This document shows positions 32,358 through 64,000 of a stretch of 64,000 nucleotides of DNA, in pieces. This stretch comes from CAVYHJ01 sp963768165 [NCBI: uncultured bacterium] (GTDB taxonomy: Bacteria; UBP4; UBA4092): NCBI GenBank assembly GCA_963768165.1, contig CAVYHJ010000028.1, positions 372,001 through 436,000 on the forward strand, read 5' to 3'. The notes below the pieces were generated by a model. The model had not been told where the DNA came from and did not search any database. It worked only from the letters and a program-made list of their open reading frames with translations. The first letter of the stretch is position 1, and every line of letters begins with the position of its first letter. Made by a program: the position numbers and the translations under genes.

Positions 32358-32714
32358 ATGGAATATCTCCCAATAATATTAATAATGGTAATCGGCCTTG
32401 CGATGGCGGGTGGCATGATATTATTATCCCATTTATTGGGACCGAGCCGTTCCACCCATCGAAAAGACGCGCCTTATGAATGCGGGGTAGACCCCAAAGG
32501 TGACGCCCGCCAGCATTTCTCCGTCAGTTTTTATATGGTGGCAATGCTATTTATTCTATTTGATGTTGAAGTAATTTTCCTGTACCCATGGGCGGTAGTT
32601 TTTATGAATATGTCACCCAAACTCTATGCGTTTATTGAAATGATGGTTTTCATTGCAGTACTTCTGGCTGGATATCTGTATGCCTGGAAGAAAGGGGCAT
32701 TTGAATGGGACTAG
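32358..32714 (+). CDS. nuoA: NADH-quinone oxidoreductase subunit A
   Basis: NuoA is a small membrane subunit of complex I, which couples NADH oxidation by quinone to proton pumping. The 118-residue protein has three membrane helices (~5-27, ~63-85, ~90-112) and the conserved loop [20 protein letters not shown] with the Cys that marks the active/deactive switch loop in homologues. AGGAA precedes the ATG. First gene of the 14-kb nuo operon; it overlaps nuoB by ten bases. Confidence 0.96.
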
Positions 32715-33202
32715 AAGAATTACTCGGGAACGATAATTTCATTACAACCAACCTGGATAAATTGGTTCAATGGTCACGAAAAAACTCGATTTGGCCTGCG
32801 ACTTTTGGTTTGGCGTGTTGCGCCATTGAGATGATGTCTGCCGGAGCTTCCAAGTTTGATTTGGCGCGGTTCGGATCGGAAGTGTTTCGCGCCTCCCCTC
32901 GTCAGGCGGATTTAATGATTGTGTCAGGCCGGGTCTCGAAAAAAATGGCGCCGGTAGTAAAAAGAATTTACGACCAAATGCCCGAACCTAAATGGGTTAT
33001 CTCAATGGGCGCTTGTGCTTCTTGCGGCGGTATCTTTAATAATTATGCCATTGTGCAGGGTGTTGACCAAATTCTTCCGGTGGATGTGTATGTCCCCGGA
33101 TGCCCGCCCAGACCGGAAATGCTGATTCAAGGAATCATGCTGCTCCAGGAGAAAATCCAAAAGGGCGACAAATCCTTTCGAGAGCCAATCGTCGTAGGTT
33201 AA
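32705..33202 (+). CDS. nuoB: NADH-quinone oxidoreductase subunit B
   Basis: NuoB holds the terminal cluster N2 that hands electrons to quinone. The 165-residue protein shows the tandem cysteines C38-C39 in LACCAIEMM plus [11 protein letters not shown] and the CPPRPE cysteine, together the four N2 ligands, all present. It overlaps nuoA and is followed by nuoC after 18 bases. Size is typical. Confidence 0.97.
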
Positions 33203-33220
33203 AACATTCTTTAATTTTCC

Positions 33221-33733
33221 ATGGATCAAATAGACAATACTACAGTTGTGAAATTAAAAGAAAAATTTCCGGATGCCATTCAGGAAGTTACTGAATTTCG
33301 CAATGAAATAACCGTTCTCGTGAAACGGGAGAATGTGTTGGATATTCTGCGTTTTATGCACGACGATAAGGATTTGGGATATAATTTTCTTGCCGATATA
33401 ACTTCCGTAGATTGGTTTCAACGGACTCCGCGATTTGACGTGGTATACCATCTACGCTCCTTAAACCATAACTTTTTTATTCGTATTAAAACTCACGTGA
33501 AGGACGGAGAAAAAATTGAATCGGCAACCCCTGTCTGGACAACTGCCAACTGGTTGGAACGGGAAGTCTATGATTTAATGGGCATCGAATTCTCCCATCA
33601 TCCCGACTTACGACGCATTCTGACACCGGATCATTGGGAAGATTACCCTTTGCGAAAAGATTATCCGCTGGTTGGGAAGAACGAACCTATCATGATTCCT
33701 ACACAGGAAGATGTGGAGGATAACGAATTATGA
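33221..33733 (+). CDS. nuoC: NADH-quinone oxidoreductase subunit C
   Basis: The 170-residue NuoC (30-kDa subunit) supports the quinone module. The signature RVKTHV-like segment (RIKTHVKDGEKIESATPVW), NWLEREVYDLMGIEFSHHPDLRRIL and the closing DYPLRKDYPL are clear. The gene is separate from nuoD, not fused as in enterobacteria; its stop overlaps the nuoD start as ATGA, so the two are translationally coupled. No Shine-Dalgarno sequence is evident. Confidence 0.97.
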   Translation: MDQIDNTTVVKLKEKFPDAIQEVTEFRNEITVLVKRENVLDILRFMHDDKDLGYNFLADITSVDWFQRTPRFDVVYHLRSLNHNFFIRIKTHVKDGEKIESATPVWTTANWLEREVYDLMGIEFSHHPDLRRILTPDHWEDYPLRKDYPLVGKNEPIMIPTQEDVEDNEL

Positions 33734-34914
33734 TTACGGATACCCCCAAGCTGAAAACCATGACCCTTAACATGGGCCCCCAACATCCCAGTACTCACGG
33801 CGTCTTGCGCCTGGAAATGGAAGTGGATGGGGAAGTAATCGTCAATTGCCGTCCGCATATCGGTTATCTCCATACGGGTGTTGAGAAAGAAGCGGAATAC
33901 AAAACCTATCACCAGGTTATTCCCATGACCGACCGGTTGGATTACCTGGCTCCCATGTCGAATAATCTCGCGTACATTTCCGCTGTGGAAAAACTTTGTG
34001 AAATTGAAGTTCCCAAACGGGCGCAATATGTCCGGGTCATGTTTACCGAACTTTCCCGAATCATGAGTCATCTCGTTTGGTTGGGAACTCATGCCATGGA
34101 TTTGGGTGCCATGAGCGTTTTCCTTTACTGTTTCCGGGAACGCGAAACCATTTTGGATATGTATGAGGAAATTTCCGGTGTCCGCATGATGGCATCCTAT
34201 TTCCGGATTGGCGGATTGCGTGAAGATATTCCCGATTCCACCATTGAAAAAATTCGGAATTTTATTAAAGTATTTCCCGAACGTTGGGCGGAATATGATG
34301 GGTTGTTAACCAAAAATCCGATATTCATCAACCGGGTCAAAGGAATCGGTGTGATTTCCGCGGAAGATGCCATTAATTATGGATTGAGCGGGCCAAGTTT
34401 ACGCGCATCCGGCGTGAAATGGGATCTCCGCAAATCGCGTCCCTATTCCAGTTATCAGGATTTTGAATTCGATATTCCTACAGAAACCGCCGGGGATGTC
34501 TTTGCCCGGTATTTTGTCCGTATCCGGGAAATGTTGGAATCGTTGCGAATCGTCAAACAATCCGTGGAGAATTTACCCCAAGGCGCTTTCATTGCCCGTG
34601 ACCCCAAATTTGTCCCACCTCCGAAAGAGGAAGCGAAAAAAGACATGGAACAATTGATTCATCATTTTATTTTATATAGTGAAGGGTTCAAAGCGCCCCA
34701 GGGTGAAATTTATAATGCCATTGAAGCCCCCAAAGGGGAACTCGGCGTTTATCTCGTGAGTGACGGGACGAATAAACCGTATCGCATGCACTGGCGCGGG
34801 CCTTCCTTTGTGAATCTGCAAGCTTTGCCGAAACTCGTGAAGGGGCGATATATCGCGGACGTGGTCGCTATTATTGGTAGTATAGATATTGTATTAGGTG
34901 AAGTGGACAGATGA
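33730..34914 (+). CDS. nuoD: NADH-quinone oxidoreductase subunit D
   Basis: NuoD (49-kDa subunit) lines the quinone pocket. The 394-residue protein begins with MTLNMGPQHPSTHGVLRLEM, the family signature, and contains RPHIGYLHTGVEK, the quinone-site His and Tyr regions, and the C-terminal APKGELGVYLVSDGTNKPYR and IDIVLGEVDR. Start and end both overlap neighbours by ATGA. Full length. Confidence 0.98.
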   Translation: MITDTPKLKTMTLNMGPQHPSTHGVLRLEMEVDGEVIVNCRPHIGYLHTGVEKEAEYKTYHQVIPMTDRLDYLAPMSNNLAYISAVEKLCEIEVPKRAQYVRVMFTELSRIMSHLVWLGTHAMDLGAMSVFLYCFRERETILDMYEEISGVRMMASYFRIGGLREDIPDSTIEKIRNFIKVFPERWAEYDGLLTKNPIFINRVKGIGVISAEDAINYGLSGPSLRASGVKWDLRKSRPYSSYQDFEFDIPTETAGDVFARYFVRIREMLESLRIVKQSVENLPQGAFIARDPKFVPPPKEEAKKDMEQLIHHFILYSEGFKAPQGEIYNAIEAPKGELGVYLVSDGTNKPYRMHWRGPSFVNLQALPKLVKGRYIADVVAIIGSIDIVLGEVDR

Positions 34915-36752
34915 GTACAACTACCTTGGAATTTTCCGAAACGACCTTGCAAAAATTTCACAATACGGTGAAGAAATATCCCAATTCCCGTTCTGCCCTA
35001 TTGCCTGCCCTCTATATGGCACAAGAGGAATTTGGACAGCTTTCCGATGATGCTATCGTGTACGTTGCGGATTTGTTGGACTTGACTCCCACAGAAGTTT
35101 ACTCGACCGCCAGTTACTACATTATGTTTCATCGCAAACCGGTTGGGAAATATGTCATCGCCCTTTGTACCAATATCTCCTGCGGACTTTGCGGGTCATA
35201 CTATGTCATGGAACATCTTAAGAAAAAATTGGGTGTCGCGATTAACGAAACGACTCCTGATAATTTATTTACTTTAAAAAACGAAGAATGTCTGGCGGCC
35301 TGTGGTTCCGGGCCTGTCATGTTGATTAATAAAGAATTATTTGAATACCTGACGCCTAAAAAAATAGATATGATTATTGACCGACTAAAAGTCGGCGATA
35401 CATTGGAAACCGTCCGGTTTGAAATCCAAAAGAATGACGGGCAATCCATTCAAAATATTCCCGATACCGGGAAAGAAGTTTTGTTAAAAAAAGTTATCGG
35501 ATTCAACAGTTCCGCCGCTATTCAAACCTATATTCAACAGGGTGGGTATGAAGCGTGGAAAAAAACACTGGCGCAATACAAACCCGATGAAGTAACCGAA
35601 ATCGTGAAAAAGTCGGGATTGCGCGGGCGCGGGGGTGCCGGGTTCTCTACCGGCATGAAATGGGGTTTCGTTCCTAAAAATATTCCCAAACCCAAATATA
35701 TGGTTTGCAACGCTGATGAATCCGAACCGGGAACATTTAAAGACCGCCAAATTCTCGAACGTGACCCGCATTTGCTGATTGAAGGAGTCGCTATCGGCAG
35801 TTATGCTATCGGTGCCAATAAAGCTTTTATTTATATTCGTGGTGAATTTCCCTATGCGATTGTCCGCGTAGAAAAAGCAGTTGAAGAAGCCCGCCAACAT
35901 GGGTTTCTCGGCAAAAATATTTTTGGTTCAAATTACGATTTGGATATTGTCGTCCATACCGGCGCGGGCGCTTATGAGTGCGGAGAAGAATCCGCGCTTT
36001 TAGATTCTTTGGAAGGCAAACGCGGAGAACCGCGCCTCCGCCCGCCATTTCCGGCGGTCAAAGGGTTATATGGTTGTCCGACCATTATTAATAATGTGGA
36101 AACTTTGTCGAATGTACCCTCAATTATTACCCATGGCCCGGAATGGTATTCCGCCATGGGTACGGAGAAAAATACCGGTACTCGGATTTACGTGGTGAGC
36201 GGGCATGTCAATAAACCCGGCCCATACGAACTGCCGATGGGTGTTACCTTGCGGGAGTTGATTTACGATTATGCGGGGGGGATGAAAGACGGACGTAAAT
36301 TAAAAGCGGTTATCCCCGGCGGATCTTCCACTCCGATTTTGACCGCCAATGAAATTGATGTCAAAATGGATTTCGATTCACTCGCCAAAGCCGGGACCAT
36401 GCTGGGTTCCGCGGGAATTATCGTCATTGACGACCGGACGTGTATTGTCCAGGTTGCCTTGCGGTTGATTGAATTTTACCGTGACGAATCCTGCGGGAAA
36501 TGCACCCCCTGCCGGGAAGGGTCGTACTGGTTATCCCAAATACTGCATCGCATTGAACACGGGCAGGGACGCATGGAAGACCTGGATTTAATACCCGATA
36601 TTTGTGACAATATCTCCGGGAAATCGTTCTGTCCCTTTGGTGACGCGGAAATTGCACCGCCCCTTAGCACAGTCAAAAAATTTAGAGAAGAATACGAATT
36701 TCATATTAAAAATAAGAAATGTTTAGTCGGTTCGGATTTCCGAATCATTTAA
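34911..36752 (+). CDS. nuoEF: NADH dehydrogenase subunits E and F fused
   Basis: A single 613-residue frame carries both subunits of the NADH-input module. Residues ~1-160 are NuoE, a thioredoxin-fold [2Fe-2S] protein with CTNISCG and ECLAACG ligands; ~185-613 are NuoF with the NADH/FMN sites GRGGAGFSTGMKWGF, CNADESEPGTFKDR and GAYECGEESALLDSLEG and the N3 [4Fe-4S] ligands SCGKCTPCREG. Together they make NADH oxidation and the first electron steps possible. The ~25-residue joint is continuous with no stop or frameshift. These are usually two genes; the fusion is uncommon. A long hairpin (36784-36827) separates it from nuoG. Confidence 0.95.
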   Translation: MSTTTLEFSETTLQKFHNTVKKYPNSRSALLPALYMAQEEFGQLSDDAIVYVADLLDLTPTEVYSTASYYIMFHRKPVGKYVIALCTNISCGLCGSYYVMEHLKKKLGVAINETTPDNLFTLKNEECLAACGSGPVMLINKELFEYLTPKKIDMIIDRLKVGDTLETVRFEIQKNDGQSIQNIPDTGKEVLLKKVIGFNSSAAIQTYIQQGGYEAWKKTLAQYKPDEVTEIVKKSGLRGRGGAGFSTGMKWGFVPKNIPKPKYMVCNADESEPGTFKDRQILERDPHLLIEGVAIGSYAIGANKAFIYIRGEFPYAIVRVEKAVEEARQHGFLGKNIFGSNYDLDIVVHTGAGAYECGEESALLDSLEGKRGEPRLRPPFPAVKGLYGCPTIINNVETLSNVPSIITHGPEWYSAMGTEKNTGTRIYVVSGHVNKPGPYELPMGVTLRELIYDYAGGMKDGRKLKAVIPGGSSTPILTANEIDVKMDFDSLAKAGTMLGSAGIIVIDDRTCIVQVALRLIEFYRDESCGKCTPCREGSYWLSQILHRIEHGQGRMEDLDLIPDICDNISGKSFCPFGDAEIAPPLSTVKKFREEYEFHIKNKKCLVGSDFRII

Positions 36753-36783
36753 CCCATGTTCACGATTTCATAGGAATGATAAG

Positions 36784-36827
36784 CGGAGTTGCAATGAACG
36801 AGATCAGTCTCGTTCATTGCAACTCCG
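36784..36827. repeat. Dispersed hairpin, copy 2 (loop TCAG), inside the nuo operon
   Basis: A perfect 20-base-pair stem with the four-base loop TCAG, 31 bases after the nuoEF stop and 18 bases before the nuoG start. The central 32 bases are the exact reverse complement of the core at 19016-19047 region (arm TGCAATGAACGAGA). No T-run follows, so it should not terminate by itself, but it could affect mRNA stability or nuoG translation. Confidence 0.85.
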
Positions 36828-36845
36828 GATAAAATACAGACAAAT

Positions 36846-39299
36846 ATGAGTGATGTAACACTGACCATAGATGGAAAACAGGTGACGGTTCCGCAGGGAA
36901 CGACGGTATTAAATGCTGCCAAAAAGATTAGTGTTCCCGTACCCGTGTTTTGTTATCACGGGGAATTAGACCCGATTGGCGCGTGCCGGATGTGTCTGGT
37001 GGAAATCGAGAAAATGCCGAAACTGGCAATTTCCTGTGCCACGGTCGCGACCGAAGGCATGGTCGTTCATACCAATAATGAAAAAGTCATCAAAGGGCAA
37101 AAGGGGATGTTGGAATTTCTTCTGATTAATCACCCTCTCGATTGTCCAGTCTGCGACAAGGGCGGAGAGTGCGAGTTACAAGATAACACTTTTGCCAACG
37201 GTCCCGGCGGAAGCCGATTCATTGAAACCAAACGGCGCTTCGTCAAAAAAGATTTGAACCAATTAATCCGTCTCGACATGAACCGGTGTATTATGTGCCG
37301 AAGATGCGTGAGGACGTGTGAAGATTTGGAAGGCCAGGGTGTCTTGGGAGTTATTGAACGGGGATATAAATCCGAAATTGCCATGTTTAGCGGGGGCGAT
37401 TCGAAATGCACCTATTGCGGAGATTGTATCGAAGCCTGTCCCGTGGGCGCGTTGACCAGTATCCCATTCCGGTTCAAGGCGCGGGTTTGGGAATTAAAAC
37501 GCACCAACACGGTTTGTACCTATTGCGCGGACGGGTGCCGGTTGACATTGGAAACACGTAATCAAAATATATTGCGTTCCCGCGCGCGGTTAACCCCGGG
37601 TGAATATCTGAGCACCGACCATCCCTGCGTCAAAGGACATTTTGGACATGACTTTGTGAGCCATCCCGGACGGTTGAAAAATCCTTTAATTCGCAAAAAC
37701 GGACAATTAACGGAAGTGGGTTGGGAAGAAGCCATTGAATTTGTTGCCAGTGGATTGGAAAAAGTAAAAGATACCTACACCGGTAGCGCCATCGGTGTAC
37801 TTGGCTCTGTGCGAACAACCACTGAAGAACAATATATTACAGCGAAATTTGCCCATGAAATATTGGAAACGGATAACCTCGACCATTTATTAACTCCCAA
37901 GGGAACATTTAAAAATGAATCTTTTGATAAATTAATTTCCCATCCGGCGAAACATGAAGATATTGTGAACGCGCAGGCGATTGTGTTGATTGGTACAAAT
38001 ATCGAAACGACCAATCCCTTTACCCGGTTGAAAATCGTAAAAGCGGTATCGCAAAAAGGCGCGCAACTCATTACGATTCATCCCCATGATACGGGGTTGC
38101 ATGGATATATCGCCCATGAATTAAGACCGAAATACGGGGCGGAGATAGCCACGGTTGGACTTGGCTTGCCTTTGGCATTGGGAGCATCAGGCGGAAACCT
38201 CGAACAGGTTGCGGCGGATACTGGGATTGCCAAAGAAGAATTCACAGAAGCGGGAAATTTATTGGCAAATGCCGAGCGGCGGGTTCTCTTGTTCGGTGCG
38301 AGTGTTTTATCTCACCCGAAAAGAGACGATTATTTAAAGGCGATTGAAAATCTGGTTTACCATTTAAATTCATTGGGTAAAGGGATAACCAAAGTTCTCT
38401 GGTTACCGGAATATAACAATTCCCGCGGGGCCCTGGAGATAGGGTTGTCGCCGAGTAATAGCGGGTTGACGTTCAACGGGATGGTGGAATCTGCGTCCTC
38501 GGGAAAACTCAAAGCGATGGTGGTTATCGGTGAAAATCCGGTATTGCGGGGACAGGACAAAAATTATATTACAGAAAATTTAAAGAAATTGGAATTTCTG
38601 GTAGTGCAGGATTTATTTATGACCGAAACTGCGGAATTAGCCCACGCGGTATTGCCCGGGGTTTCTTTCGCGGAAAAAGACGGCACCTATATTACCTTGG
38701 ATGGGTTGGTACAGAAAGTAAATATTGCATTTCCTCCCAGAGAAGAAGCGAAACCGGATTGGTGGATATTGACTGAGCTTGCGAATCAATTGGGTGTATG
38801 CTGGAACTATGAATTTGCTGAACAGATACTGGTGGAAATCAGTCAAACGGTCAAAGGATTCGAGAAAGTAAAATTTGATGACTTGGGACGAGATGGAATT
38901 TACATTGATTATCCGAATAAACCAATTTCAGATTTCAGATTTCAGATTTCAGATTTAACTTCGATTCCTTTACCTGAATCCAATTCTGATTTTTATCTGC
39001 AGACAGGGAATGTGTTGATTCATTCCGGGACGATGACGCGGTACGCCAAAGTTCTAGAGAGTTTATCGGATCATCCGTTCGTTTCGATTTCCCGTACCGA
39101 TGCCAAACGGTTGAATATTAAAGAAGGGCAAACCGTAACTGTGGAATCGGACAAAGGGGTTTTGACGTTGCCAGTGATAGTCACGAAACATCAAGCCAGG
39201 GGAACCATCTTCGTGCCTAATAACTTTACCCAGGCACACGTGAATAGTTTGTTTGGAAAAGACAGTGAGTCCGTCCAGGTGAAATTAAAAACCGAATAA
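36846..39299 (+). CDS. nuoG: NADH-quinone oxidoreductase subunit G
   Basis: NuoG is the large iron-sulfur subunit of the peripheral arm. The 817-residue protein has an N-terminal [2Fe-2S] domain (CYHGELDPIGACRMC), the His-Cys3 cluster motif HPLDCPVCDKGGECELQD, two ferredoxin-like [4Fe-4S] motifs (CIMCRRCVRTCE, CTYCGDCIEACP), an extra CTYCADGC motif at the start of the molybdopterin-oxidoreductase-like domain, and that domain to the end. Residues 694-704 are encoded by a 7-base tandem repeat (38925-38956). The gene is in frame throughout. It is preceded by a dispersed hairpin, so its expression may be set apart from nuoA-EF. Confidence 0.95.
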   Translation: MSDVTLTIDGKQVTVPQGTTVLNAAKKISVPVPVFCYHGELDPIGACRMCLVEIEKMPKLAISCATVATEGMVVHTNNEKVIKGQKGMLEFLLINHPLDCPVCDKGGECELQDNTFANGPGGSRFIETKRRFVKKDLNQLIRLDMNRCIMCRRCVRTCEDLEGQGVLGVIERGYKSEIAMFSGGDSKCTYCGDCIEACPVGALTSIPFRFKARVWELKRTNTVCTYCADGCRLTLETRNQNILRSRARLTPGEYLSTDHPCVKGHFGHDFVSHPGRLKNPLIRKNGQLTEVGWEEAIEFVASGLEKVKDTYTGSAIGVLGSVRTTTEEQYITAKFAHEILETDNLDHLLTPKGTFKNESFDKLISHPAKHEDIVNAQAIVLIGTNIETTNPFTRLKIVKAVSQKGAQLITIHPHDTGLHGYIAHELRPKYGAEIATVGLGLPLALGASGGNLEQVAADTGIAKEEFTEAGNLLANAERRVLLFGASVLSHPKRDDYLKAIENLVYHLNSLGKGITKVLWLPEYNNSRGALEIGLSPSNSGLTFNGMVESASSGKLKAMVVIGENPVLRGQDKNYITENLKKLEFLVVQDLFMTETAELAHAVLPGVSFAEKDGTYITLDGLVQKVNIAFPPREEAKPDWWILTELANQLGVCWNYEFAEQILVEISQTVKGFEKVKFDDLGRDGIYIDYPNKPISDFRFQISDLTSIPLPESNSDFYLQTGNVLIHSGTMTRYAKVLESLSDHPFVSISRTDAKRLNIKEGQTVTVESDKGVLTLPVIVTKHQARGTIFVPNNFTQAHVNSLFGKDSESVQVKLKTE
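38925..38956. repeat. Tandem heptamer ATTTCAG within nuoG
   Basis: Four full copies of ATTTCAG followed by ATTT, 32 bases, in frame, encoding ISDFRFQISDL. Because 7 is not a multiple of 3, gain or loss of one unit would shift the frame and truncate NuoG. Confidence 0.9.
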
Positions 39300-39315
39300 A
39301 CAGAAAATTTAAATT

Positions 39316-40329
39316 ATGAATGATTTAGAATTTTATATTATTGCGAGTCTCGTGAAAATTGGTATTGTGCTGGGTGCTGTGATGGGCGCGGCGGTTCCGG
39401 GTATGGTTTATCTGGAACGGCGGATTGTAGCGTTCATGCAACAACGTTTGGGACCCAACCGGGTCGGGCCGTTCGGCTTGTTTCAACCAATAGCAGACGC
39501 AATTAAATTGATGTGGAAAGAAGATATTACGCCATCAGACGCGGATAAGTTTCTATATTTCCTGGCGCCCGGGATTGTGGTATTTACTGCCGTGATTGCT
39601 TTGGCAATTATTCCTTTCGGACCCGATGTTCGGATCATGGGACACACCGTTGGGCTTTATGTCGCGGATATTAATGTTGGAATTCTGTATGTCTTGGCTG
39701 TTTCATCCATGGCGGTATACGGGATTGTCTTTGCCGGGTGGGCCTCCAACAGTAAATATTCCCTGCTCGGCGGATTACGGTCTTCCGCGCAAATGATTAG
39801 TTATGAATTATCCATGGGACTGGCGTTAATTGGTGTTATCATGCTTTCGCAAACCTTGAGTTTAAAAACGATTGTAGACGTTCAAAAAGTATGTCCCTTT
39901 ATTATTCTCCAGCCGTTAGGTTTTATCATTTTTCTAGTCTGCATGATTGCGGAAACCAACCGTGCGCCGTTCGATTTACCGGAAGCGGAAACTGAATTGG
40001 TCGCCGGGTTTCATACGGAATATACCAGTATGAAATTCGCCATGTTTTTTATGGCAGAATATGCCAATATGGTTACCATGTCCGCCATCATTTCAACTTT
40101 GTTTTTAGGCGGATGGCGCTGGCCGATTGCTGAACCGGGAGTGATTGTCGGAGTAATTCAATTTGTAGTAAAAGTATTCGCCTTTTTGTTTTTCTATATT
40201 TGGCTGCGGGCAACCTTGCCCAGATTCCGCTATGACCAATTAATGAGATTTGGATGGAAGATTTTGTTACCACTCGGAATTTTGAATCTTTTTATTACGG
40301 GACTTTTAATTTGTTACGCAAAAGGATAA
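39316..40329 (+). CDS. nuoH: NADH-quinone oxidoreductase subunit H
   Basis: NuoH joins the quinone pocket to the membrane arm. The 337-residue protein has about eight membrane helices and the family signatures ERRIVAFMQQRLGPNRVGPFG and AETNRAPFDLPEAETELVAGFHTEY, including the acidic residues lining the quinone tunnel. It begins 16 bases after nuoG and ends nine bases before the nuoI ATG. There is no clear Shine-Dalgarno sequence. Confidence 0.98.
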   Translation: MNDLEFYIIASLVKIGIVLGAVMGAAVPGMVYLERRIVAFMQQRLGPNRVGPFGLFQPIADAIKLMWKEDITPSDADKFLYFLAPGIVVFTAVIALAIIPFGPDVRIMGHTVGLYVADINVGILYVLAVSSMAVYGIVFAGWASNSKYSLLGGLRSSAQMISYELSMGLALIGVIMLSQTLSLKTIVDVQKVCPFIILQPLGFIIFLVCMIAETNRAPFDLPEAETELVAGFHTEYTSMKFAMFFMAEYANMVTMSAIISTLFLGGWRWPIAEPGVIVGVIQFVVKVFAFLFFYIWLRATLPRFRYDQLMRFGWKILLPLGILNLFITGLLICYAKG

Positions 40330-40338
40330 TTGGATAGT

Positions 40339-40851
40339 ATGTTTGAAATTGTAAAAGGATTGATTATTACGGCGAAACACCTGGCAAGAAAGCCGACCAC
40401 TTTGCAATATCCTGAAGAAAAAAAGGTAATGCCAGAACGGTTCCGCGGGCGACATCATCTCCGCCGGGATAAAGAGGGCTTGGAGTTGTGTATCGGATGT
40501 CATTTATGCGCGGTGGTATGCCCGGCGGACGCCATTTTCTTAGAAGCGGAAGAAAACACGGAACAGGACAGACATTCTGGTGGCGAGCGGTACGCTAAAA
40601 TTTACCAGATTGATTATCTGCGGTGTATCTTTTGTGGTTTTTGTGTAGATGCCTGTCCAACCGATGCGCTGGTCATGGGGAAAGAATATGAAATGGGTGC
40701 GTATAAACGGGAAGACTTTATTTATAAAAAAGAAAAATTAATGGATTCACCGCAAGACAAAACAGACGTGAAAGCCTATTACCGGACGGATGGCGGAACC
40801 TGGAATTCCGATACGAATGAACTTGAAAAAGGGGAGAATAGAGAGACGTAA
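40339..40851 (+). CDS. nuoI: NADH-quinone oxidoreductase subunit I
   Basis: NuoI carries clusters N6a and N6b that lead electrons to NuoB. The 170-residue protein has two ferredoxin motifs, CIGCHLCAVVCP and CIFCGFCVDACP, all eight Cys present, preceded by the amphipathic helix and FRGRHHLRRD. I start at the ATG at 40339; a TTG at 40330 is possible. The C-terminal tail is hydrophilic and a bit long. Confidence 0.96.
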   Translation: MFEIVKGLIITAKHLARKPTTLQYPEEKKVMPERFRGRHHLRRDKEGLELCIGCHLCAVVCPADAIFLEAEENTEQDRHSGGERYAKIYQIDYLRCIFCGFCVDACPTDALVMGKEYEMGAYKREDFIYKKEKLMDSPQDKTDVKAYYRTDGGTWNSDTNELEKGENRET

Positions 40852-40875
40852 TATTGGATGTCTCAATAAACAAAA

Positions 40876-41394
40876 ATGAATATACAGCTTGTTATATTTG
40901 CCTTACTAAGTATTTTCGCGATTAGCGGTGCGATTGTTACCGTGACGCACCGGAATCCGGTGTATTGTGCGTTGGGTCTAATCGCGTGCTTTCTCGCGGT
41001 AGCCGGATTTTATTTATTGCTTAACGCGCCATTTTTAGCAGCCGTCCAAGTGATTATTTACGCGGGTTCCATTATGACGTTGTTTATTTTCACCATCATG
41101 CTGATGGATTTGGATAAATCGCATATTGAATCAGATCCGGCAAAACTTGGAAAATATATCGCTATGTTGTTGGGATATGTCCTGTTTTTCCAATTGGTCA
41201 TTGTTGTAAATATGGGAATCCTATCGGGAAAACAAGGACCATGGACAGCCGAAAAAATCAAAGCGATGGGACATACCCAGGTGGTTGGAAAAGTCCTGTT
41301 TTCGCAATATCTCTATCCCTTTGAAATTATTTCATTGATTTTATTGGTCGCCTTAATCGGCGCCATCATTCTCGGAAAGAAGAGGATTGATTAA
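40876..41394 (+). CDS. nuoJ: NADH-quinone oxidoreductase subunit J
   Basis: NuoJ is a membrane subunit with the pi-bulge helix that takes part in proton-pump coupling. The 172-residue protein has five hydrophobic segments and the typical RNPVYCALGLI and VQVIIYAGSIMTLFIFTIMLMDL. No Shine-Dalgarno sequence is visible upstream; it is followed two bases later by nuoK. Confidence 0.96.
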   Translation: MNIQLVIFALLSIFAISGAIVTVTHRNPVYCALGLIACFLAVAGFYLLLNAPFLAAVQVIIYAGSIMTLFIFTIMLMDLDKSHIESDPAKLGKYIAMLLGYVLFFQLVIVVNMGILSGKQGPWTAEKIKAMGHTQVVGKVLFSQYLYPFEIISLILLVALIGAIILGKKRID

Positions 41395-41396
41395 AC

Positions 41397-41699
41397 ATGA
41401 TCCCGTTATCCTATTATCTGAGCGTTGCCGCGTTTCTGTTTTTTCTGGGGGTTGTCGGGATATTAACCCGGCGCAATACCTTGGTCATGCTCATGTGTAT
41501 TGAGTTGATGATGAATGCTGTCAATTTAACGTTTGTGGCGATGTCGGCCTATCTCCATTCGTTAAATGGACAGATGTTTGTGTTTTTCGTAACGGCGGTC
41601 GCAGCGGCGGAAGTCAGTGTGGGGTTGGCCATTATTATCGCCATCTTCCGAAATAAATCCACAGTGGATGTGGATAAACTGGATAGTCTACAAGGATAA
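41397..41699 (+). CDS. nuoK: NADH-quinone oxidoreductase subunit K
   Basis: NuoK, related to MrpC, is a three-helix proton-channel subunit. The 100-residue protein has RRNTLVMLMCIELMMNAVNL with the key membrane Glu residues, and VAAAEVSVGLAIIIAIFR with the second one. Start two bases after nuoJ; nuoL begins nine bases after its stop. Confidence 0.97.
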   Translation: MIPLSYYLSVAAFLFFLGVVGILTRRNTLVMLMCIELMMNAVNLTFVAMSAYLHSLNGQMFVFFVTAVAAAEVSVGLAIIIAIFRNKSTVDVDKLDSLQG

Positions 41700-41708
41700 T
41701 TTGATTCC

Positions 41709-43589
41709 ATGATGCAAAATTATATTTGGCTGATACCGATATTTCCCCTTGCGGGAGTTTTAATCAATTTATTTTTTGGCCGGGTCTTGCGTAAAGCCAT
41801 AGACTGGATTGCGTGTCTGGCGGTGGGCGCTTCTTTCGTGGTGGCGCTGGTTGCTTTTTTTCATGTCCTGAACGGGGAGACGTTAAATTATAATTTTTTT
41901 GACTGGATTGTCGTCGGCCATTTCAAAACCTCTATCGGGTTGTTGGTAGATCCGTTGTCCGCGATTATGCTTTTGGTAGTCACCGGTGTCAGTTTCCTGA
42001 TTCATATTTACTCCATTGGGTATATGCACGGAGACGAAGGGTATAATCGGTTTTTCGTTTATTTGAATCTCTTTGTCTTTTCCATGGTCATGTTGGTGTT
42101 AGCGAATAACTTTTTATTACTTTATGTCGGCTGGGAAGCGGTGGGTTTATGTTCGTACCTTTTAATTGGGTTCTGGTTTACCAAAAAGTCTGCCGCGGAT
42201 GCCGGAAAAAAAGCGTTTATCGTCAACCGTGTCGGTGACTTTGGTTTCGGGTTGGGAATCATGTTGATTTTTACCACTCTCGGAACATTGCAGTTTACTG
42301 AAGTCTTCAGCAAAGCCAATACCATTTGTTCCGGGACTGTCACTGCGATTACTTTATTACTACTACTGGGAGCGATGGGAAAATCCGCGCAAATTCCGTT
42401 ATACGTTTGGTTGCCTGACGCGATGGAAGGGCCAACTCCGGTTTCCGCGTTGATTCACGCGGCGACCATGGTGACCGCTGGTGTGTATATGATTGCGCGG
42501 TGTCATGCTTTATTTGATTTGGCACCAACCACCCAAACAATCGTGGTATGGATGGGAACGTTGACTGCCTTTTTTGCGGCGACCATTGCGCTGGTACAAA
42601 AGGATATTAAAAAAATACTCGCCTATTCCACCATCAGCCAGCTTGGATATATGTTTGTTGCCGTGGGATTGGGCGCTTACACCGCTGGAATTTTTCATTT
42701 GGCTACACACGCCTTTTTCAAAGCTTTATTATTTCTCGGCGCGGGAAGTGTAATGCATGCGATGGCGAATGAAACCGATGTGTGGAAAATGGGCGGATTG
42801 GGTGACCAGATGAAAGCCACCCGGTGGACATTTTTCATCGCCTGTTTGGCAATCGCCGGAATATTTCCCTTTGCCGGATTTTTCAGCAAAGAAGAAATTT
42901 TAGGCGCGGCTTTTCATTCGGGAAATTATGCCGTTTATTTGATTGCTCTGGTCACGGCGTTTCTTACCGCATTTTATATGTTTCGGATTTATTTCTTAAC
43001 TTTCCGCGGGACTCCACGATACGACACCCATGCGCATCACGCCCATGAATCGCCTTCCGTAATGACCATTCCGTTGATGATTCTCGGATTTTTTTCTTTC
43101 TTTGTCGGCTGGATAGGTTTTAAGTTTCATAACATATCCTGGTTCGATTCATTTTTGAGTCCTGTTTTCACCCATGTTGGAGAACATGCCACAACAGAGG
43201 AAAGCAGCGGTTCATTTCTATTAATCCTCGTAGCGCTTGTGATAGCGGGGTTGGGGATATTCCTAGCATGGCAATTTTATTTAAAACATTTGCAATGGGC
43301 TAATAAATTGGCGGAAAAATATTCCACTTTACACCGTATCTTGACCAACAAATATTACGTAGATGAATTCTATGATGCGATATTTGTGAGCACGATTAAG
43401 AACTTATCTTTGGCCCTTTGGAAAGGGTTTGATTTGGGTGTCATTGATTTTATTGTCAATCTAACAGGAACTTTAGTGTCCGGGATCGGCCAATTATTAC
43501 GACGGTTTCAATCCGGTTATGTGCGGACCTACGCAACCCTCATTGTCTTAGGAGTTATTGCCGTCATTGGATTTTATTTGGTGAGATAG
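41709..43589 (+). CDS. nuoL: NADH-quinone oxidoreductase subunit L
   Basis: NuoL is the distal antiporter-like pump subunit with the long lateral helix. The 626-residue protein has about sixteen membrane helices, the N-terminal domain signature YVGWEAVGLCSYLLIGFW, pump residues within AMGKSAQIPLYVWLPDAMEG and HAATMVTAGVYMI, and the C-terminal lateral helix region ending in YVRTYATLIVLGVIAV. Normal length, no breaks. Confidence 0.98.
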   Translation: MMQNYIWLIPIFPLAGVLINLFFGRVLRKAIDWIACLAVGASFVVALVAFFHVLNGETLNYNFFDWIVVGHFKTSIGLLVDPLSAIMLLVVTGVSFLIHIYSIGYMHGDEGYNRFFVYLNLFVFSMVMLVLANNFLLLYVGWEAVGLCSYLLIGFWFTKKSAADAGKKAFIVNRVGDFGFGLGIMLIFTTLGTLQFTEVFSKANTICSGTVTAITLLLLLGAMGKSAQIPLYVWLPDAMEGPTPVSALIHAATMVTAGVYMIARCHALFDLAPTTQTIVVWMGTLTAFFAATIALVQKDIKKILAYSTISQLGYMFVAVGLGAYTAGIFHLATHAFFKALLFLGAGSVMHAMANETDVWKMGGLGDQMKATRWTFFIACLAIAGIFPFAGFFSKEEILGAAFHSGNYAVYLIALVTAFLTAFYMFRIYFLTFRGTPRYDTHAHHAHESPSVMTIPLMILGFFSFFVGWIGFKFHNISWFDSFLSPVFTHVGEHATTEESSGSFLLILVALVIAGLGIFLAWQFYLKHLQWANKLAEKYSTLHRILTNKYYVDEFYDAIFVSTIKNLSLALWKGFDLGVIDFIVNLTGTLVSGIGQLLRRFQSGYVRTYATLIVLGVIAVIGFYLVR

Positions 43590-43599
43590 AACAAATTAT

Positions 43600-45126
43600 A
43601 TGGATATAACAACAATTCCAATTTTATCAGTCATTATCTTTCTGCCGTTGGTCGGTGTAATTGTCTTATTACTGACTCCGAAGAAGAACCATCCTGCCTT
43701 ACGGATAATTACTTTTCTAACTGCGCTTATCACTTTTTTTGTTTCGTTATTACTTTTGACTAATTTTGAATCTGCCAGTGCGGAAATGCAGTTTGTGGAA
43801 TTAAGGTCCTGGATACCCGATTTCAGCATATCCTATCATCTAGGCATAGACGGAATAAGTTTATTTTTGATTCTTTTAACGACCTTTCTTTCTGCTATAG
43901 CCATCCTATCTTCGTTCACAGCAGTCACCAAACGTGTCAAAGAATACATGATTTGTTTATTGCTTTTGGAGACCGGAATGCTGGGTGTTTTTTGTTCGCT
44001 GGACATGGTGTTGTTTTTCTTTTTCTGGGAAGTGATGCTGATCCCGATGTATTTTCTGATAGGCGTGTGGGGTGGGGAACGCCGGTTATACGCGGCGATT
44101 AAATTTATACTATACACGATGACCGGAAGCGCGCTGATGCTGGTTGCCATCCTGGTGATGTATTTTCAATATCATAGTATGACCCAACAATATAGCTTTG
44201 ATTTACTGAAATGGTACCAAATGTCTCTCCCCTATAATTTGCAATACTGGTTATTCCTGGCATTCTTTTTGGCTTTTGCGATAAAAGTTCCGATATTTCC
44301 ATTTCACACGTGGTTACCGGACGCGCATACCGAAGCGCCCACCGCGGGCAGTGTGATTCTGGCAGGAGTTCTCTTGAAAATGGGGACCTATGGTCTGGTG
44401 CGGTTTTGCCTGCCGTTATTCCCGCAAGCCACTTTGCATTTTGTGCCGATGGTTTGTATACTCGCATTAATCGGGATTATTTATGGCGCGTGGGTGGCGA
44501 TGGTACAGCCGGATGTAAAACGATTGGTGGCGTATTCCAGTGTCGCCCATCTCGGTTATGTCGTTCTTGGGATTTTTGTTTTGAATATGCAAGGATTAAC
44601 CGGCGGGCTATTACAAATGATTAATCACGGACTCAGTACCGGCGCTTTGTTCCTTCTGGTCGGGATGATTTATGAACGTAGACACACCCGCGAGATATCT
44701 CAATTTGGCGGACTCGCCAAAGTCATGCCGGTTTTTTTTGTTTTCTTTTTGATTGTGACTTTGTCTTCCATTGGACTCCCGGGGTTAAATGGATTTGTTG
44801 GAGAATTTTCCATACTGGTGGGTACGTTCCAATATAAAATTTCTTATGCAGTTGTTGCGACTCTCGGAATTATTTTTGCGGCAGTTTACATGCTCTGGAT
44901 GTTCCAGAGGGTGATGTTCGGTGAAATCACCCATGAAGAAAATCGCACTCTTAAAGATTTATCCGCGCGTGAAATCGCTGTTTTAATTCCGATTATTATT
45001 TTAATTTTTTGGATAGGCGTATATCCAAAGCCCTTTTTATCCCGCATGGAACCTTCTGTGAATAAAGTGCTTGAGAAAGTCCATCCGGTGGAACCCCTTA
45101 TCCAAATTACGGAGAACCGGCCTTGA
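43600..45126 (+). CDS. nuoM: NADH-quinone oxidoreductase subunit M
   Basis: NuoM is the middle antiporter-like pump subunit. The 508-residue protein has about fourteen helices, FFFFWEVMLIPMYFLIG with the conserved Glu, KVPIFPFHTWLPDAHTEAPT with the pump Lys/His, and VKRLVAYSSVAHLGYV. Its stop codon overlaps the nuoN start (TTGA), implying coupled translation. Confidence 0.98.
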   Translation: MDITTIPILSVIIFLPLVGVIVLLLTPKKNHPALRIITFLTALITFFVSLLLLTNFESASAEMQFVELRSWIPDFSISYHLGIDGISLFLILLTTFLSAIAILSSFTAVTKRVKEYMICLLLLETGMLGVFCSLDMVLFFFFWEVMLIPMYFLIGVWGGERRLYAAIKFILYTMTGSALMLVAILVMYFQYHSMTQQYSFDLLKWYQMSLPYNLQYWLFLAFFLAFAIKVPIFPFHTWLPDAHTEAPTAGSVILAGVLLKMGTYGLVRFCLPLFPQATLHFVPMVCILALIGIIYGAWVAMVQPDVKRLVAYSSVAHLGYVVLGIFVLNMQGLTGGLLQMINHGLSTGALFLLVGMIYERRHTREISQFGGLAKVMPVFFVFFLIVTLSSIGLPGLNGFVGEFSILVGTFQYKISYAVVATLGIIFAAVYMLWMFQRVMFGEITHEENRTLKDLSAREIAVLIPIIILIFWIGVYPKPFLSRMEPSVNKVLEKVHPVEPLIQITENRP

Positions 45127-46577
45127 ATTCATCCCTTGCCCATATTGATTTTGTCGTTGTATTCCCGCAGGTGATATTAAGTATCACAGCAATACTGGTT
45201 TTGTTGGCAGGATTGGTCATTCCCCGCAGACAACATGTGTTGTTGGCAATTCTCAGCCTTGCCGGAGTTCTTTTAGCGATGGTGGTTTCTTTGCACCATC
45301 CAATGTTTTCGACAAGCACTTTCAATCAAATGGCGACTCTTGACGGTCTCACGATTGTGTTTAATCTAATATTCTATATTTCAACCGCGTTTATCCTTGT
45401 CTTATCCATACCTTTTTTAGACCGGGAAGACGTGCATCCGGGAGAATATTATTCCTTGATTTTGTTTGCTGTTGTAGGAATGATATTGATGGCGGGCACG
45501 ACAGATTTGATGATTATCTTTTTGGGATTGGAATTAATGTCCATCTCATTGTATATCCTTGCTTCGATTACTCGCGATAATCCCAAATCGAATGAAGCCG
45601 CCATGAAATATTTATTATTGGGAGCCTTTGCCACCGGCTTTTTATTGTATGGTATTGCTTTGATTTACGGCGCTACGGGAAGTACCAATCTGCTGGAAAT
45701 TACTCGATTCATGTCCCATCGACGGCTTTACTTGAGCGGTTGGATGTTGCCCGTCGGCTTGGGTCTGGTGATGGTCGGTTTGGGCTTTAAGATTGGGATG
45801 GTACCGTTTCATTCATGGATTCCCGATGTTTATGAAGGCTCCCCTACGATTGTTACGGCATTTATGTCCATCGGTCCAAAGGCGGCAGGATTCGCCGGAT
45901 TGATAAGAATTTTTGTTGACGGGCCATTTTATTTCGTCAACATTCCCTGGCCATTTTTAATTGCAGTATTTGCGGGTCTAACTATGACCGTCGGAAATTT
46001 AGTCGCCATTGCGCAGGGCAATATCAAACGCATGTTAGCGTATTCCAGTATCGCTCATGCCGGTTATATTATGTTGGGATTGGTCTCCGCCAATCATGTG
46101 TATACTCCGGCAATTCTGTTTTATTTCTTTGCGTATTTATTTATGAACTTGGGGGCGTTTACGGTGGTATTTGCCGTTCAGCAAAGTGAAGGTGTCGGGA
46201 ATACTCTGAAAACCTATTCGGGTTTAGGATATAAACAACCCCTGCTGGCGCTCGCCATGACATTTTTTATGTTATCCCTTGCGGGATTTCCGCCGACCGC
46301 CGGATTCATGGGTAAATTTTATTTATTCAGGAGCGCCATTGATGCCGGACATATCCCGGTAGTCATTATTGCTGTATTAAACAGTGTGATTTCCGCGTAT
46401 TATTATTTGCGTGTGGTTGTCTTCATGTATATGCGGGAGCCGGAAGATAATACCAATATCCCCGTGGTTTCTTCTCTGGTTGGAATTGTCATACTCCTTT
46501 GTGTTCTTGGCGTATTTTACCTGGGTATCTTTCCCGAACACGTTCTCCACATTACCCAATTAGCACTTTATTTCTAA
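45123..46577 (+). CDS. nuoN: NADH-quinone oxidoreductase subunit N
   Basis: NuoN is the proximal antiporter-like pump subunit and the last gene of the operon. The 484-residue protein has about fourteen helices with LGLELMSISLYILA, FKIGMVPFHSWIPDVYEGSP and IKRMLAYSSIAHAGYI. The start is a TTG at 45123 overlapping the nuoM stop; no other start fits the N-terminal helix. A nested hairpin (46585-46639) follows. Confidence 0.97.
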   Translation: MNSSLAHIDFVVVFPQVILSITAILVLLAGLVIPRRQHVLLAILSLAGVLLAMVVSLHHPMFSTSTFNQMATLDGLTIVFNLIFYISTAFILVLSIPFLDREDVHPGEYYSLILFAVVGMILMAGTTDLMIIFLGLELMSISLYILASITRDNPKSNEAAMKYLLLGAFATGFLLYGIALIYGATGSTNLLEITRFMSHRRLYLSGWMLPVGLGLVMVGLGFKIGMVPFHSWIPDVYEGSPTIVTAFMSIGPKAAGFAGLIRIFVDGPFYFVNIPWPFLIAVFAGLTMTVGNLVAIAQGNIKRMLAYSSIAHAGYIMLGLVSANHVYTPAILFYFFAYLFMNLGAFTVVFAVQQSEGVGNTLKTYSGLGYKQPLLALAMTFFMLSLAGFPPTAGFMGKFYLFRSAIDAGHIPVVIIAVLNSVISAYYYLRVVVFMYMREPEDNTNIPVVSSLVGIVILLCVLGVFYLGIFPEHVLHITQLALYF

Positions 46578-61766: not shown

Positions 61767-61802
61767 AATTTTTTAGTAAGCAACGTTAATCGGAGGTGTC
61801 TT

Positions 61803-63626
61803 ATGAAGCGGTTAATTGTGTTCCTTTTAATGCTTTCCTTTATTTCCTTAACCTATTGTTTTGGCGAAAGATACGTGTTGCAATTCAAAGATGGGAATGT
61901 GATTGAAGGGAATATAGTCTCGCAGGATGATGTCATGATAACCATAAAACTAGATTCCGATAAGAATATTTCCTATTACAAAGTCCTGTTGAATACACTT
62001 GAACCCAGTACCGGCTATCACACCCGGTTGGGAGACGATTCCTATAAAGCGAGAAAATACGCGGATGCTGTCAAAGAGTATGAAAAAGTCCTGCAAATCG
62101 ATCCGCAAAACGACCATGCTCAAAAACAAATTGCCGCTATTAACAAAAGGTATGCTTCCCAGCACAAGGAACAACAAGCCAAACAAAATGAAATTGCCGA
62201 TGCTCTGCTCTTTTCCCAAGGTATGTCTTATTACCGGAGTATGAATTATGAACTGGCGGCTAGTAAATTCAAGGAAGCCTTAACCTACAATGCCAATGAC
62301 AGTTCTGCCGCGGAGTATCTCAAGTTATCCACGCAGAAAGCCTCGGAAACAGAGCCGCAAAGTGTTCAAGATGAAGAAAAACTAATGCAATCTGAAAAGA
62401 CCGAAACCGTTAAACAGCCAGAATTAAATGCGGTGGTGGCAAATAATACGCCTCCCCCCGCTCCTACGGAAACAATCTCTGATGTGCAGAAAGTAGTTAC
62501 CGGGAATACCGCCTTTGCGCTGAACCTCTACAGCGAGTTAAAAACGACGGGTGGTAATTTGTTCTTTTCACCCTACAGTCTTTCCATGGCATTGGCGATG
62601 ACCTATGGCGGCGCACGGGGCCAAACAGCCGAACAAATGGCCCGTGTATTACAGTTCCCAACGCTCCCAAACAATAAACTACACGCTGCCTTTGGCGCCC
62701 TGAAAGCCAGAATGGATTCCATTCAAAAAGGTGGAACCGTCCAACTTAATATCGCGAATGCGCTGTGGCCGCAGAAGGGGTATCCCTTTCTAAACAAATA
62801 CCTCAACCTTTTAAAGTCGCAATACGGTGGCTCTGTTACGCCCTTGGATTATAAGGAAAATAAAGAGGCGGCCTGCCAGGCCATCAACCACTGGGTGGAA
62901 GAACAAACTCAGCATAAAATCACTGACCTGATTCAGCCAGGGTCGCTGAATTCATTAACACGTCTTGTGTTGGCCAATGCGATTTACTTCAAGGGCCAAT
63001 GGGCTACCCCATTCAATCCGAATGCTACGGTAAAGGATACCTTTCATCAGACCGTCATCAAAGATGTGCCCTGCCAGATGATGAAAAAGCAAGAAACTTT
63101 TGCCTATACCGAGACCCCTGACTTGCAAATCGTGGAACTTCCGTACGCCGGGAAAGAATTATCGATGGTTATTTTGTTGCCCCGAACGGTGGACGGTATC
63201 GGCACATTGGAAAACAGTCTTTCGGCAAAAAAGCTGACGGAGTGGTTTGGCAGCCTGAAAAAGAAAACAGTAATGGTACATTTGCCTAAATTCCTGCAGA
63301 CCAGTACGTTTAACTTGGCAGAAATCCTCGAGAAAATGGGCATGACTTTGGCATTCGATAATAAGGCGGATTTTTCCGGGATGAATGGGCATACCAATGA
63401 CTTATTCATTGGTGTTGTTAGGCACAAGGCGTATGTGGACATCAACGAGAAGGGTACGGAAGCAGCCGCAGCAACGGCGATTACGATGAGGATGAGCGCA
63501 AGACTGGGAGAGCGAGAAGTTCCTATCCCGGTGTTTCGGGCGGACCATCCATTTATTTTCCTGATTGTGGATAAGAACACGAGTAGTATTTTGTTCATGG
63601 GCCGTGTAAACGAGCCGAAAACCTAA
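61803..63626 (+). CDS. Exported TPR-serpin fusion protein
   Basis: A 607-residue exported protein joining three parts. Signal peptide at 1-~20 (LIVFLLMLSFISLTYCFG); a small beta domain (~24-65, VLQFKDGNVIEGNIV); two TPR units (~75-110 and ~140-180); a polar proline-rich linker (~180-235); and a complete serpin (~235-607). Serpins trap serine or cysteine proteases by a loop that inserts after cleavage. The hinge is inhibitory in type (E549-KGTEAAAAT), and counting 17 residues places P1 at S565, beside M564 and A566; NPFFFSPYSLSMALAMT-type and FRADHPFIFLI-type family signatures are present (FFSPYSLSMALAMTYGGA, VFRADHPFIFLI). Bacterial serpins are usually single-domain. Confidence 0.9.
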   Translation: MKRLIVFLLMLSFISLTYCFGERYVLQFKDGNVIEGNIVSQDDVMITIKLDSDKNISYYKVLLNTLEPSTGYHTRLGDDSYKARKYADAVKEYEKVLQIDPQNDHAQKQIAAINKRYASQHKEQQAKQNEIADALLFSQGMSYYRSMNYELAASKFKEALTYNANDSSAAEYLKLSTQKASETEPQSVQDEEKLMQSEKTETVKQPELNAVVANNTPPPAPTETISDVQKVVTGNTAFALNLYSELKTTGGNLFFSPYSLSMALAMTYGGARGQTAEQMARVLQFPTLPNNKLHAAFGALKARMDSIQKGGTVQLNIANALWPQKGYPFLNKYLNLLKSQYGGSVTPLDYKENKEAACQAINHWVEEQTQHKITDLIQPGSLNSLTRLVLANAIYFKGQWATPFNPNATVKDTFHQTVIKDVPCQMMKKQETFAYTETPDLQIVELPYAGKELSMVILLPRTVDGIGTLENSLSAKKLTEWFGSLKKKTVMVHLPKFLQTSTFNLAEILEKMGMTLAFDNKADFSGMNGHTNDLFIGVVRHKAYVDINEKGTEAAAATAITMRMSARLGEREVPIPVFRADHPFIFLIVDKNTSSILFMGRVNEPKT

Positions 63627-63794: not shown

Positions 63795-64000
63795 ATGAGA
63801 ATTAAAAGGATTTATTTCAGTATTATTGTATCCATCGTAGTATTCATCGGAGGATGTACGCAGAAACCGGCGAAGCCCATGGATGCACAATCTTATTATG
63901 AGCAAGGGAGACAGTTATCTATGCAGGCAAAGTATCAGGAAGCGATAGGATATTTTGATAAGGCGTTAGCCATCAATTCTACTTATCTTCTCGCCTGGTA
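63795..64000 (+). CDS. TPR lipoprotein, N-terminal part (cut by window end)
   Basis: The first 68 codons of a gene that continues beyond the window. A lipoprotein signal (IIVSIVVFIGGC, Cys21) is followed by a TPR unit (AQSYYEQGRQLSMQAKYQEA, IGYFDKALAINSTYLLAW). GAGGAAG precedes the ATG. It should be anchored in a membrane facing the periplasm, like the TPR part of the preceding serpin fusion. Confidence 0.8.
   Translation, partial: MRIKRIYFSIIVSIVVFIGGCTQKPAKPMDAQSYYEQGRQLSMQAKYQEAIGYFDKALAINSTYLLAW

What the first reader, a model, noticed from the sequence alone, without database searches (positions are those of the whole stretch)
61803..63626. Serpin fused to an exported TPR module
Bacterial serpins are known, but an exported protein with a small beta domain, TPRs and a linker before a complete inhibitory-type serpin is not an arrangement I recognise. 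TPRs could dock the inhibitor to a membrane complex, perhaps with the TPR lipoprotein encoded next. The hinge GTEAAAAT is intact and the predicted P1 is S565 with Met before and Ala after, so targets may be elastase- or chymotrypsin-like proteases. It could protect the cell from host, predator or own proteases.
Basis: partly seen in the sequence, partly recalled or inferred. Interest (0 to 1): 0.62.

Follow-up and report, generated by a model that had tools for sequence, protein, structure and literature searches.

The report
Exported TPR-serpin fusion protein
A bacterium of unknown kind encodes a protease inhibitor of the serpin family whose front end carries an export signal and two protein-binding TPR repeats; the inhibitor part is ordinary, but this particular front end was not found on any other serpin examined here.

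Summary
Window 61803-63626 (+) is one uninterrupted 607-codon frame: a hydrophobic export signal, a small predicted beta region (weak evidence), two TPR motifs (not a long array), a Pro/Thr/Glu-rich linker and a full-length serpin (Pfam 234-605, E=1e-118) with the inhibitory hinge EKGTEAAAAT and hinge-counted P1 = Ser565.

The serpin is a standard bacterial inhibitory-type serpin: 53-56% identical to the best Planctomycetota match found and 346 bits to chloropin, a solved bacterial serpin. None of 62 Planctomycetota serpin frames with at least 60 residues ahead of the serpin has a Pfam TPR match. A 14-genome phylum whose NuoD is closer to the window's held only a serpin fragment, in 1 of 14 genomes.

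Other front ends occur on Planctomycetota serpins: ECF sigma factor, and more weakly dockerin, SH3-like and FecR-like. So "serpin with an N-terminal module" is a theme of which TPR is one more variant. I read it as an exported suicide inhibitor positioned by its N-terminus; partner, target and organism are unknown. Only two bacterial groups could be sampled in depth, so rarity elsewhere is untested. New variant of a known kind; modest interest.

The parts
61792..61798 (+). ribosome-binding-like GGAGGTG
   Evidence: read directly
61803..61862 (+). N-terminal hydrophobic export signal, residues about 1-20 (type I-like; the residues before Cys19 do not fit a lipobox)
   Evidence: hydropathy maximum; cleavage site is inference, no predictor run
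61866..61988 (+). small predicted beta region, residues about 22-62
   Evidence: weak: sub-threshold NCBIfam match NF047433; four strands in a low-confidence model; no Pfam match
62016..62111 (+). TPR motif 1, residues 72-103
   Evidence: Pfam TPR_2 E=1.6e-9
62199..62300 (+). TPR motif 2, residues about 133-166
   Evidence: Pfam counts a second TPR_2 stretch without printing its place; consensus 7 of 8 at 133
62343..62480 (+). linker rich in Glu, Pro, Thr, residues about 181-226
   Evidence: read directly; relatives' matches start in or after it, one at 173
62502..63617 (+). serpin domain, residues 234-605
   Evidence: Pfam Serpin E=1e-118; 8gxv chloropin 346 bits over 236-605
63447..63533 (+). 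reactive loop: hinge E549-T558 (P17-P8), P1 S565, P1' A566, up to V577
63795..64000 (+). start of the next gene, a putative TPR lipoprotein cut by the window end; not shown to belong
   Evidence: TPR_1/TPR_2 E about 1.5e-5, just under the cut-offs; lipobox by eye

Best explanation
The gene makes an exported, multidomain suicide inhibitor. Shown from sequence: a single frame, an export-type N-terminus, two TPR motifs, and a full serpin with intact inhibitory hinge and shutter residues. Inferred: the protein is moved across the inner membrane; a target serine (or cysteine) protease cleaves the exposed loop near Ser565-Ala566; the loop inserts into sheet A and traps the protease covalently. The beta region and the TPR pair act as a spacer or adaptor holding the inhibitor near a partner in the envelope, and the linker gives the serpin freedom to change shape. 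Its likely job is to protect envelope proteins, or the cell's own exported enzymes, from stray or foreign proteases.
For: Serpin E=1e-118 over the full profile. Best solved match is chloropin, 8gxv, an experimentally inhibitory bacterial serpin whose P1 Arg (abstract and passages of PMC10090351) is where the same hinge count puts it in the alignment. Hinge E549, G551, T552, E553, A554-A557 and T558 and shutter residues S256, S259 and H541 are invariant with five Planctomycetota serpins (the shutter assignments are recalled from alpha-1-antitrypsin). One strong hydrophobic segment, at the N-terminus; a passage of PMC8233489 says most prokaryotic serpins have N-terminal transport peptides. In Planctomycetota the serpin domain sits behind several unrelated N-terminal modules, which fits an adaptor-plus-inhibitor design. 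The rows grouped with it in the tree, L019 and L024, have open frames of only 411 aa with about 30 residues ahead of the serpin match, so no TPR.
Against: No activity, partner or target is known. Only two TPR motifs, about 30 residues apart. Structure models of the whole protein (mean pLDDT 47.5) and of the N-terminus (46.8) are too poor to use. No second example of the fusion, so no conservation of the N-terminus could be measured. One of the five aligned relatives (L002) has Asp for N392 and Arg for K496, so two of the recalled key residues are not fixed even among relatives. A passage of PMC10090351 says many prokaryotic serpins are intracellular.
Confidence: 0.6

Rival explanations
1. Protease sensor rather than mere inhibitor: cleavage and loop insertion of the serpin change the state of the TPR part, which signals to an envelope partner.
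For: Planctomycetota serpins occur fused behind ECF sigma factors with one hydrophobic segment between (8 ORFs in 5 genomes; named by reading, counted by Pfam) and behind FecR-like regions (L108 FecR 23.9 bits against a cut-off of 24; L023 and L107 by eye only, no FecR match), so serpins do sit on signalling proteins.
Against: The window protein has no sigma or FecR match and no second strong hydrophobic segment; a 46-residue flexible-looking linker is poor at passing on a shape change.
Confidence: 0.12
2. The serpin part has lost inhibition and serves as a binding or storage domain.
For: Non-inhibitory serpins exist in animals (recalled). The loop is at the long end of the range: 27 residues against a commonest 23.
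Against: Hinge P15-P8 is exactly GTEAAAAT, as in inhibitory serpins; non-inhibitory ones usually lose the small residues here (recalled). A passage of PMC8233489 gives ExGTEAAAA as the inhibitory hinge.
Confidence: 0.1
3. Assembly chimera: a TPR gene and a serpin gene joined by error.
For: No relative examined shows the same join; third-position GC is 0.46-0.47 in the beta and TPR parts, 0.35 in the linker and 0.56 in the serpin.
Against: The join is in frame and lies in a low-complexity linker just where plain serpins have their signal peptide and spacer; apart from the short linker the GC3 values lie within the spread of five other window genes (0.41-0.59).
Confidence: 0.05
4. The N-terminal region is a passive spacer or export and stability aid with no binding role.
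For: Only two TPR motifs; motif 1 scores just 5 of 8 by simple consensus count, a value most shuffles also reach.
Against: TPR_2 score above the curated cut-off (37.6 against 27).
Confidence: 0.2

Closest known systems
Chloropin (PDB 8GXV), bacterial inhibitory serpin
   Same: 346 bits over residues 236-605; same EKGTEAAAATA hinge; same position of P1 by hinge count
   Different: P1 Arg (PMC10090351, abstract and passages) against Ser; loop three residues shorter; the solved chain is the serpin alone (375 residues), without TPR
Planctomycetota serpins (L023 in G058; L019 and L024; L001-L005)
   Same: 45-56% identical over the serpin; in many, a hydrophobic N-terminal segment then the serpin (read by eye)
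   Different: no TPR match in any of 62 frames with 60 or more residues before the serpin
Serpins with dockerin (cellulosome serpins of clostridia and rumen bacteria)
   Same: an inhibitor brought to a site by a fused adaptor domain (recalled; papers holding both terms seen only in a search listing, none read)
   Different: dockerin binds cohesin in a known scaffold; here a TPR pair with no known partner. Two Planctomycetota frames here carry a dockerin-like segment (L049, L051; Dockerin_1 in 2 of 30; 22.8 bits against a cut-off of 22.9 in L049)
ECF sigma factor-serpin fusions in Planctomycetota (found here)
   Same: serpin at the C-terminus behind an unrelated module
   Different: sigma domain plus a hydrophobic segment instead of signal peptide plus TPR

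Membership tests
Serpin superfamily | full-length serpin fold by profile | tested here: met
   Pfam PF00079 397 bits, profile 2-370 of 370
Inhibitory serpins | hinge P17-P8 Glu, any, Gly, Thr/Ser, any, four small residues, Thr | tested here: met
   E549 K G T E A A A A T558
Inhibitory serpins | shutter Ser, Ser, Asn, His and the Lys-Glu breach pair | tested here: met
   S256, S259, N392, H541, K496 and E549 present by alignment; assignment of roles recalled from alpha-1-antitrypsin
Inhibitory serpins | covalent SDS-stable complex with a protease | not testable with these tools
   bench assay needed
TPR proteins | at least one TPR motif above the curated cut-off | tested here: met
   TPR_2 37.6 bits against a cut-off of 27
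TPR docking superhelix | three or more tandem motifs | tested here: not met
   two motifs, about 30 residues apart; no usable structure model
Bacterial lipoproteins | lipobox with a small residue before Cys | tested here: not met
   Leu-Thr-Tyr-Cys19, read directly; no predictor run
Cellulosome-type dockerin serpins | dockerin domain | tested here: not met
   no dockerin match at E<=1

The most novel reading that the evidence does not exclude
Bacteria in and around Planctomycetota use the serpin domain as an interchangeable C-terminal protease trap or protease sensor behind many N-terminal modules (TPR, ECF sigma, FecR, dockerin, SH3-like), and the window protein is the TPR form: an envelope-docked trap whose irreversible shape change on protease attack is read out by a bound partner.
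Probability: 0.15. Interest if true: 0.7.

Novelty: new variant of a known kind. Interest (0 to 1): 0.33.

Why it matters
The roles of bacterial serpins are largely unknown (PMC8233489, passages). A serpin tied to a protein-binding module gives a handle: the partner of the TPR part would show where the inhibitor works and which protease it guards against. Together with the sigma-factor and FecR-like fusions seen in Planctomycetota, it suggests that some bacterial serpins are parts of larger envelope or signalling proteins, not only free inhibitors.

Tried and rejected
Structure: the whole protein with five serpins as alignment (mean pLDDT 47.5) and the N-terminus alone (46.8). Both too poor, so no fold search was run. 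Only L001-L005 (from the search for related loci) were given to the folding tool with the window protein, out of 85 distinct serpin frames held later, because its rule names no loci from the genome search.

Placing the organism: no genome is held. NuoD is 56-59% identical over nearly its full length in 8 of the 14 genomes of the phylum of G006, and lower or only partial in the other 6; it is 45-47% in the full-length matches of G002, G004 and G005. LysS is at most 51% over long matches in 19 genomes, the best of them Planctomycetota, so the two proteins disagree on the nearer group. No tRNA or Rfam match in the window. Left unplaced.

Relatives of the N-terminal region: nothing else in the window; hits in other genomes are short TPR matches (L006, L014-L017). 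Viral contigs: none. Plasmid serpins: none of 80 records has a place covering 80% of the query; the 20 listed all start at residue 224 or later.

Class of the best-matching genome G058: 2 genomes, 1 with matches, none starting before residue 221. Class of G300: 29 genomes, 7 with a match, none starting before residue 208.

Operon with the upstream ABC transporter: 150-base gap; the pattern scan found no forward promoter-like and no terminator-like site in the two gaps beside the gene, and site numbers overall were at chance level. Undecided.

An unexplained mismatch: one search gives open frames of 962 and 983 aa for the G200 and G318 serpins, but the fetched stretches hold frames of 416 and 418 aa.

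Full report
What is there. Window 61803-63626 on the + strand is one open frame of 607 codons with an ATG start and a GGAGG ribosome-binding-like sequence just upstream. Pfam places a full serpin at residues 234-605 (E=1e-118, profile 2-370 of 370) and TPR_2 at 72-103 with a second stretch whose place it does not print (E=1.6e-9). The second motif is most likely residues 133-166 (7 of 8 positions of a recalled consensus; 16 of 1000 shuffles reach 7). The only strongly hydrophobic segment is at the N-terminus. The beta region rests on a sub-threshold NCBIfam match and on a low-confidence model; Pfam finds nothing there.

The reactive loop. Counting from the hinge, G551 is P15, so S565 is P1 and A566 P1'. 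The same count applied to chloropin in the alignment lands on Arg, the P1 given in its abstract (PMC10090351), which supports the method. Of 85 distinct serpin frames held at that point, 53 matched my loop pattern. In these P1 is Gly 22, Thr 9, Arg 6, Leu 5, Ala 4, Lys 3, and Met, Glu, Ser, Val one each; the stretch from hinge Gly up to the following Phe is most often 23 residues (21 of 53) and 27 in 3 of 53, as in the window. The other 32 did not fit the pattern: in many the hinge is intact but the downstream Phe motif differs or the frame is cut, while some have a changed hinge (for example L058, L061, L067, L069, L074), so not every relative need be inhibitory. Small P1 residues are usual among the 53, but the long loop and two nearby Arg residues leave the true cut in the window protein open.

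Relatives. In 392 Planctomycetota genomes, 150 had a match at E<=0.001; by my count of its table, 112 of these have best E below 1e-20, and the other 38 may be TPR or divergent serpins. No listed match began before residue 173; the listing was cut. I then read the frames of the 30 loci returned by that call and of 40 further stretches from it, mostly chosen because their open frame could hold an extra domain; the remaining listed rows were judged only by match range and open-frame length. Of 82 serpin frames in loci L001-L087, 62 have at least 60 residues ahead of the serpin. All 62 were scanned against Pfam in two sets (30, 32; two of the 62 are repeat reads of one contig) and none has a TPR match at E<=0.01, where the window protein scores 1.6e-9. 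A phylum of 14 genomes whose NuoD is closer to the window's (56-59% in 8 of 14, against 45-47% in three Planctomycetota) has only one serpin fragment; but LysS is closest to Planctomycetota (51%), so the organism stays unplaced.

Other front ends. Among the first 30 of these frames, 8 carry ECF sigma regions (Sigma70_r4_2 in 8, Sigma70_r2 in 7) and 2 a Dockerin_1 match. In the three sigma fusions listed singly the sigma matches exceed Pfam's cut-offs; dockerin (L049), zinc-ribbon-like (L026) and SH3-like (L031) matches are all below theirs, and SH3-like in L003 is by eye. L108, fetched later, has a FecR match at 23.9 bits against a cut-off of 24; L107 and L023 look similar by eye but have no FecR match. 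A quick tree of 80 serpin domains, the window's included, groups the window with L019 and L024 (SH-aLRT 93, below the starred level); by path length L023 is equally near. The ECF fusions fall in three places, though one origin is not ruled out.

How it most likely works. An exported inhibitor disables its target protease by the serpin mechanism, and its N-terminal part holds it near a partner. The first half rests on strong family evidence; the second is inference from architecture. I know of no experiment on this protein.

Literature. In the listings of searches for serpin with tetratricopeptide terms (15 of 268 listed; 40: none found; 70: 10 of 62 listed), with sigma factor and fusion (10 of 16), with FecR (5 of 7), with Planctomycetes (15 of 15) and for bacterial or prokaryotic serpins (30 of 38), no title or abstract opening described such a fusion. 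'Planctomyc', 'tetratricopeptide', 'fusion' and 'multidomain' do not occur in the main text of PMC8233489, the large serpin phylogeny (find). Passages of a review on ECF sigma factors (PMC8103513) show that C-terminal extensions of ECFs are known in general; I did not search it for serpins. Only openly licensed papers are held, and no protein database could be searched by architecture.

Verdict. Real, mostly as described, and a new combination within what could be searched, but a single case from an unplaced organism, with an ordinary serpin and only two TPR motifs. New variant of a known kind.

Noticed in passing
L028, L055, L056 (genome G160); L041 (G129); L043, L052 (G190); L045 (G095); L058 (G075): Serpins fused behind an ECF sigma factor (sigma-70 regions 2 and 4) with one hydrophobic segment between: a predicted membrane-tethered sigma factor with an outside serpin, which could be a protease sensor. 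Pfam found region 4 in 8 and region 2 in 7 of the 30 frames scanned; L043 looks frameshifted in the region 2 part (by eye).
   Followed up: partly
L108 and L107 (G083), L023 (G058): Serpins behind a hydrophobic segment and a FecR-like region (Pfam FecR just under cut-off in L108 only; the others by eye).
   Followed up: partly
L049 (G309), L051 (G254): Planctomycetota serpins with an N-terminal dockerin-like segment.
   Followed up: partly
L026; L003 and L031: Serpins with a zinc-ribbon-like segment (L026) or an SH3-like segment (L003, L031) at the N-terminus; all matches below curated cut-offs or by eye.
   Followed up: partly
L105 (G200), L106 (G318): Planctomycetota serpins that begin without any evident signal peptide (by eye), perhaps cytoplasmic.
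   Followed up: no
L013 (genome G011, C65): A serpin match of 42-45 residues in a 47-codon frame, the only serpin trace in 14 genomes of that phylum; possibly a decayed gene.
   Followed up: no
window 32705-46577: Run of complex I genes (NuoD and NuoG named by NCBIfam; the others are guessed from size and order).
   Followed up: no
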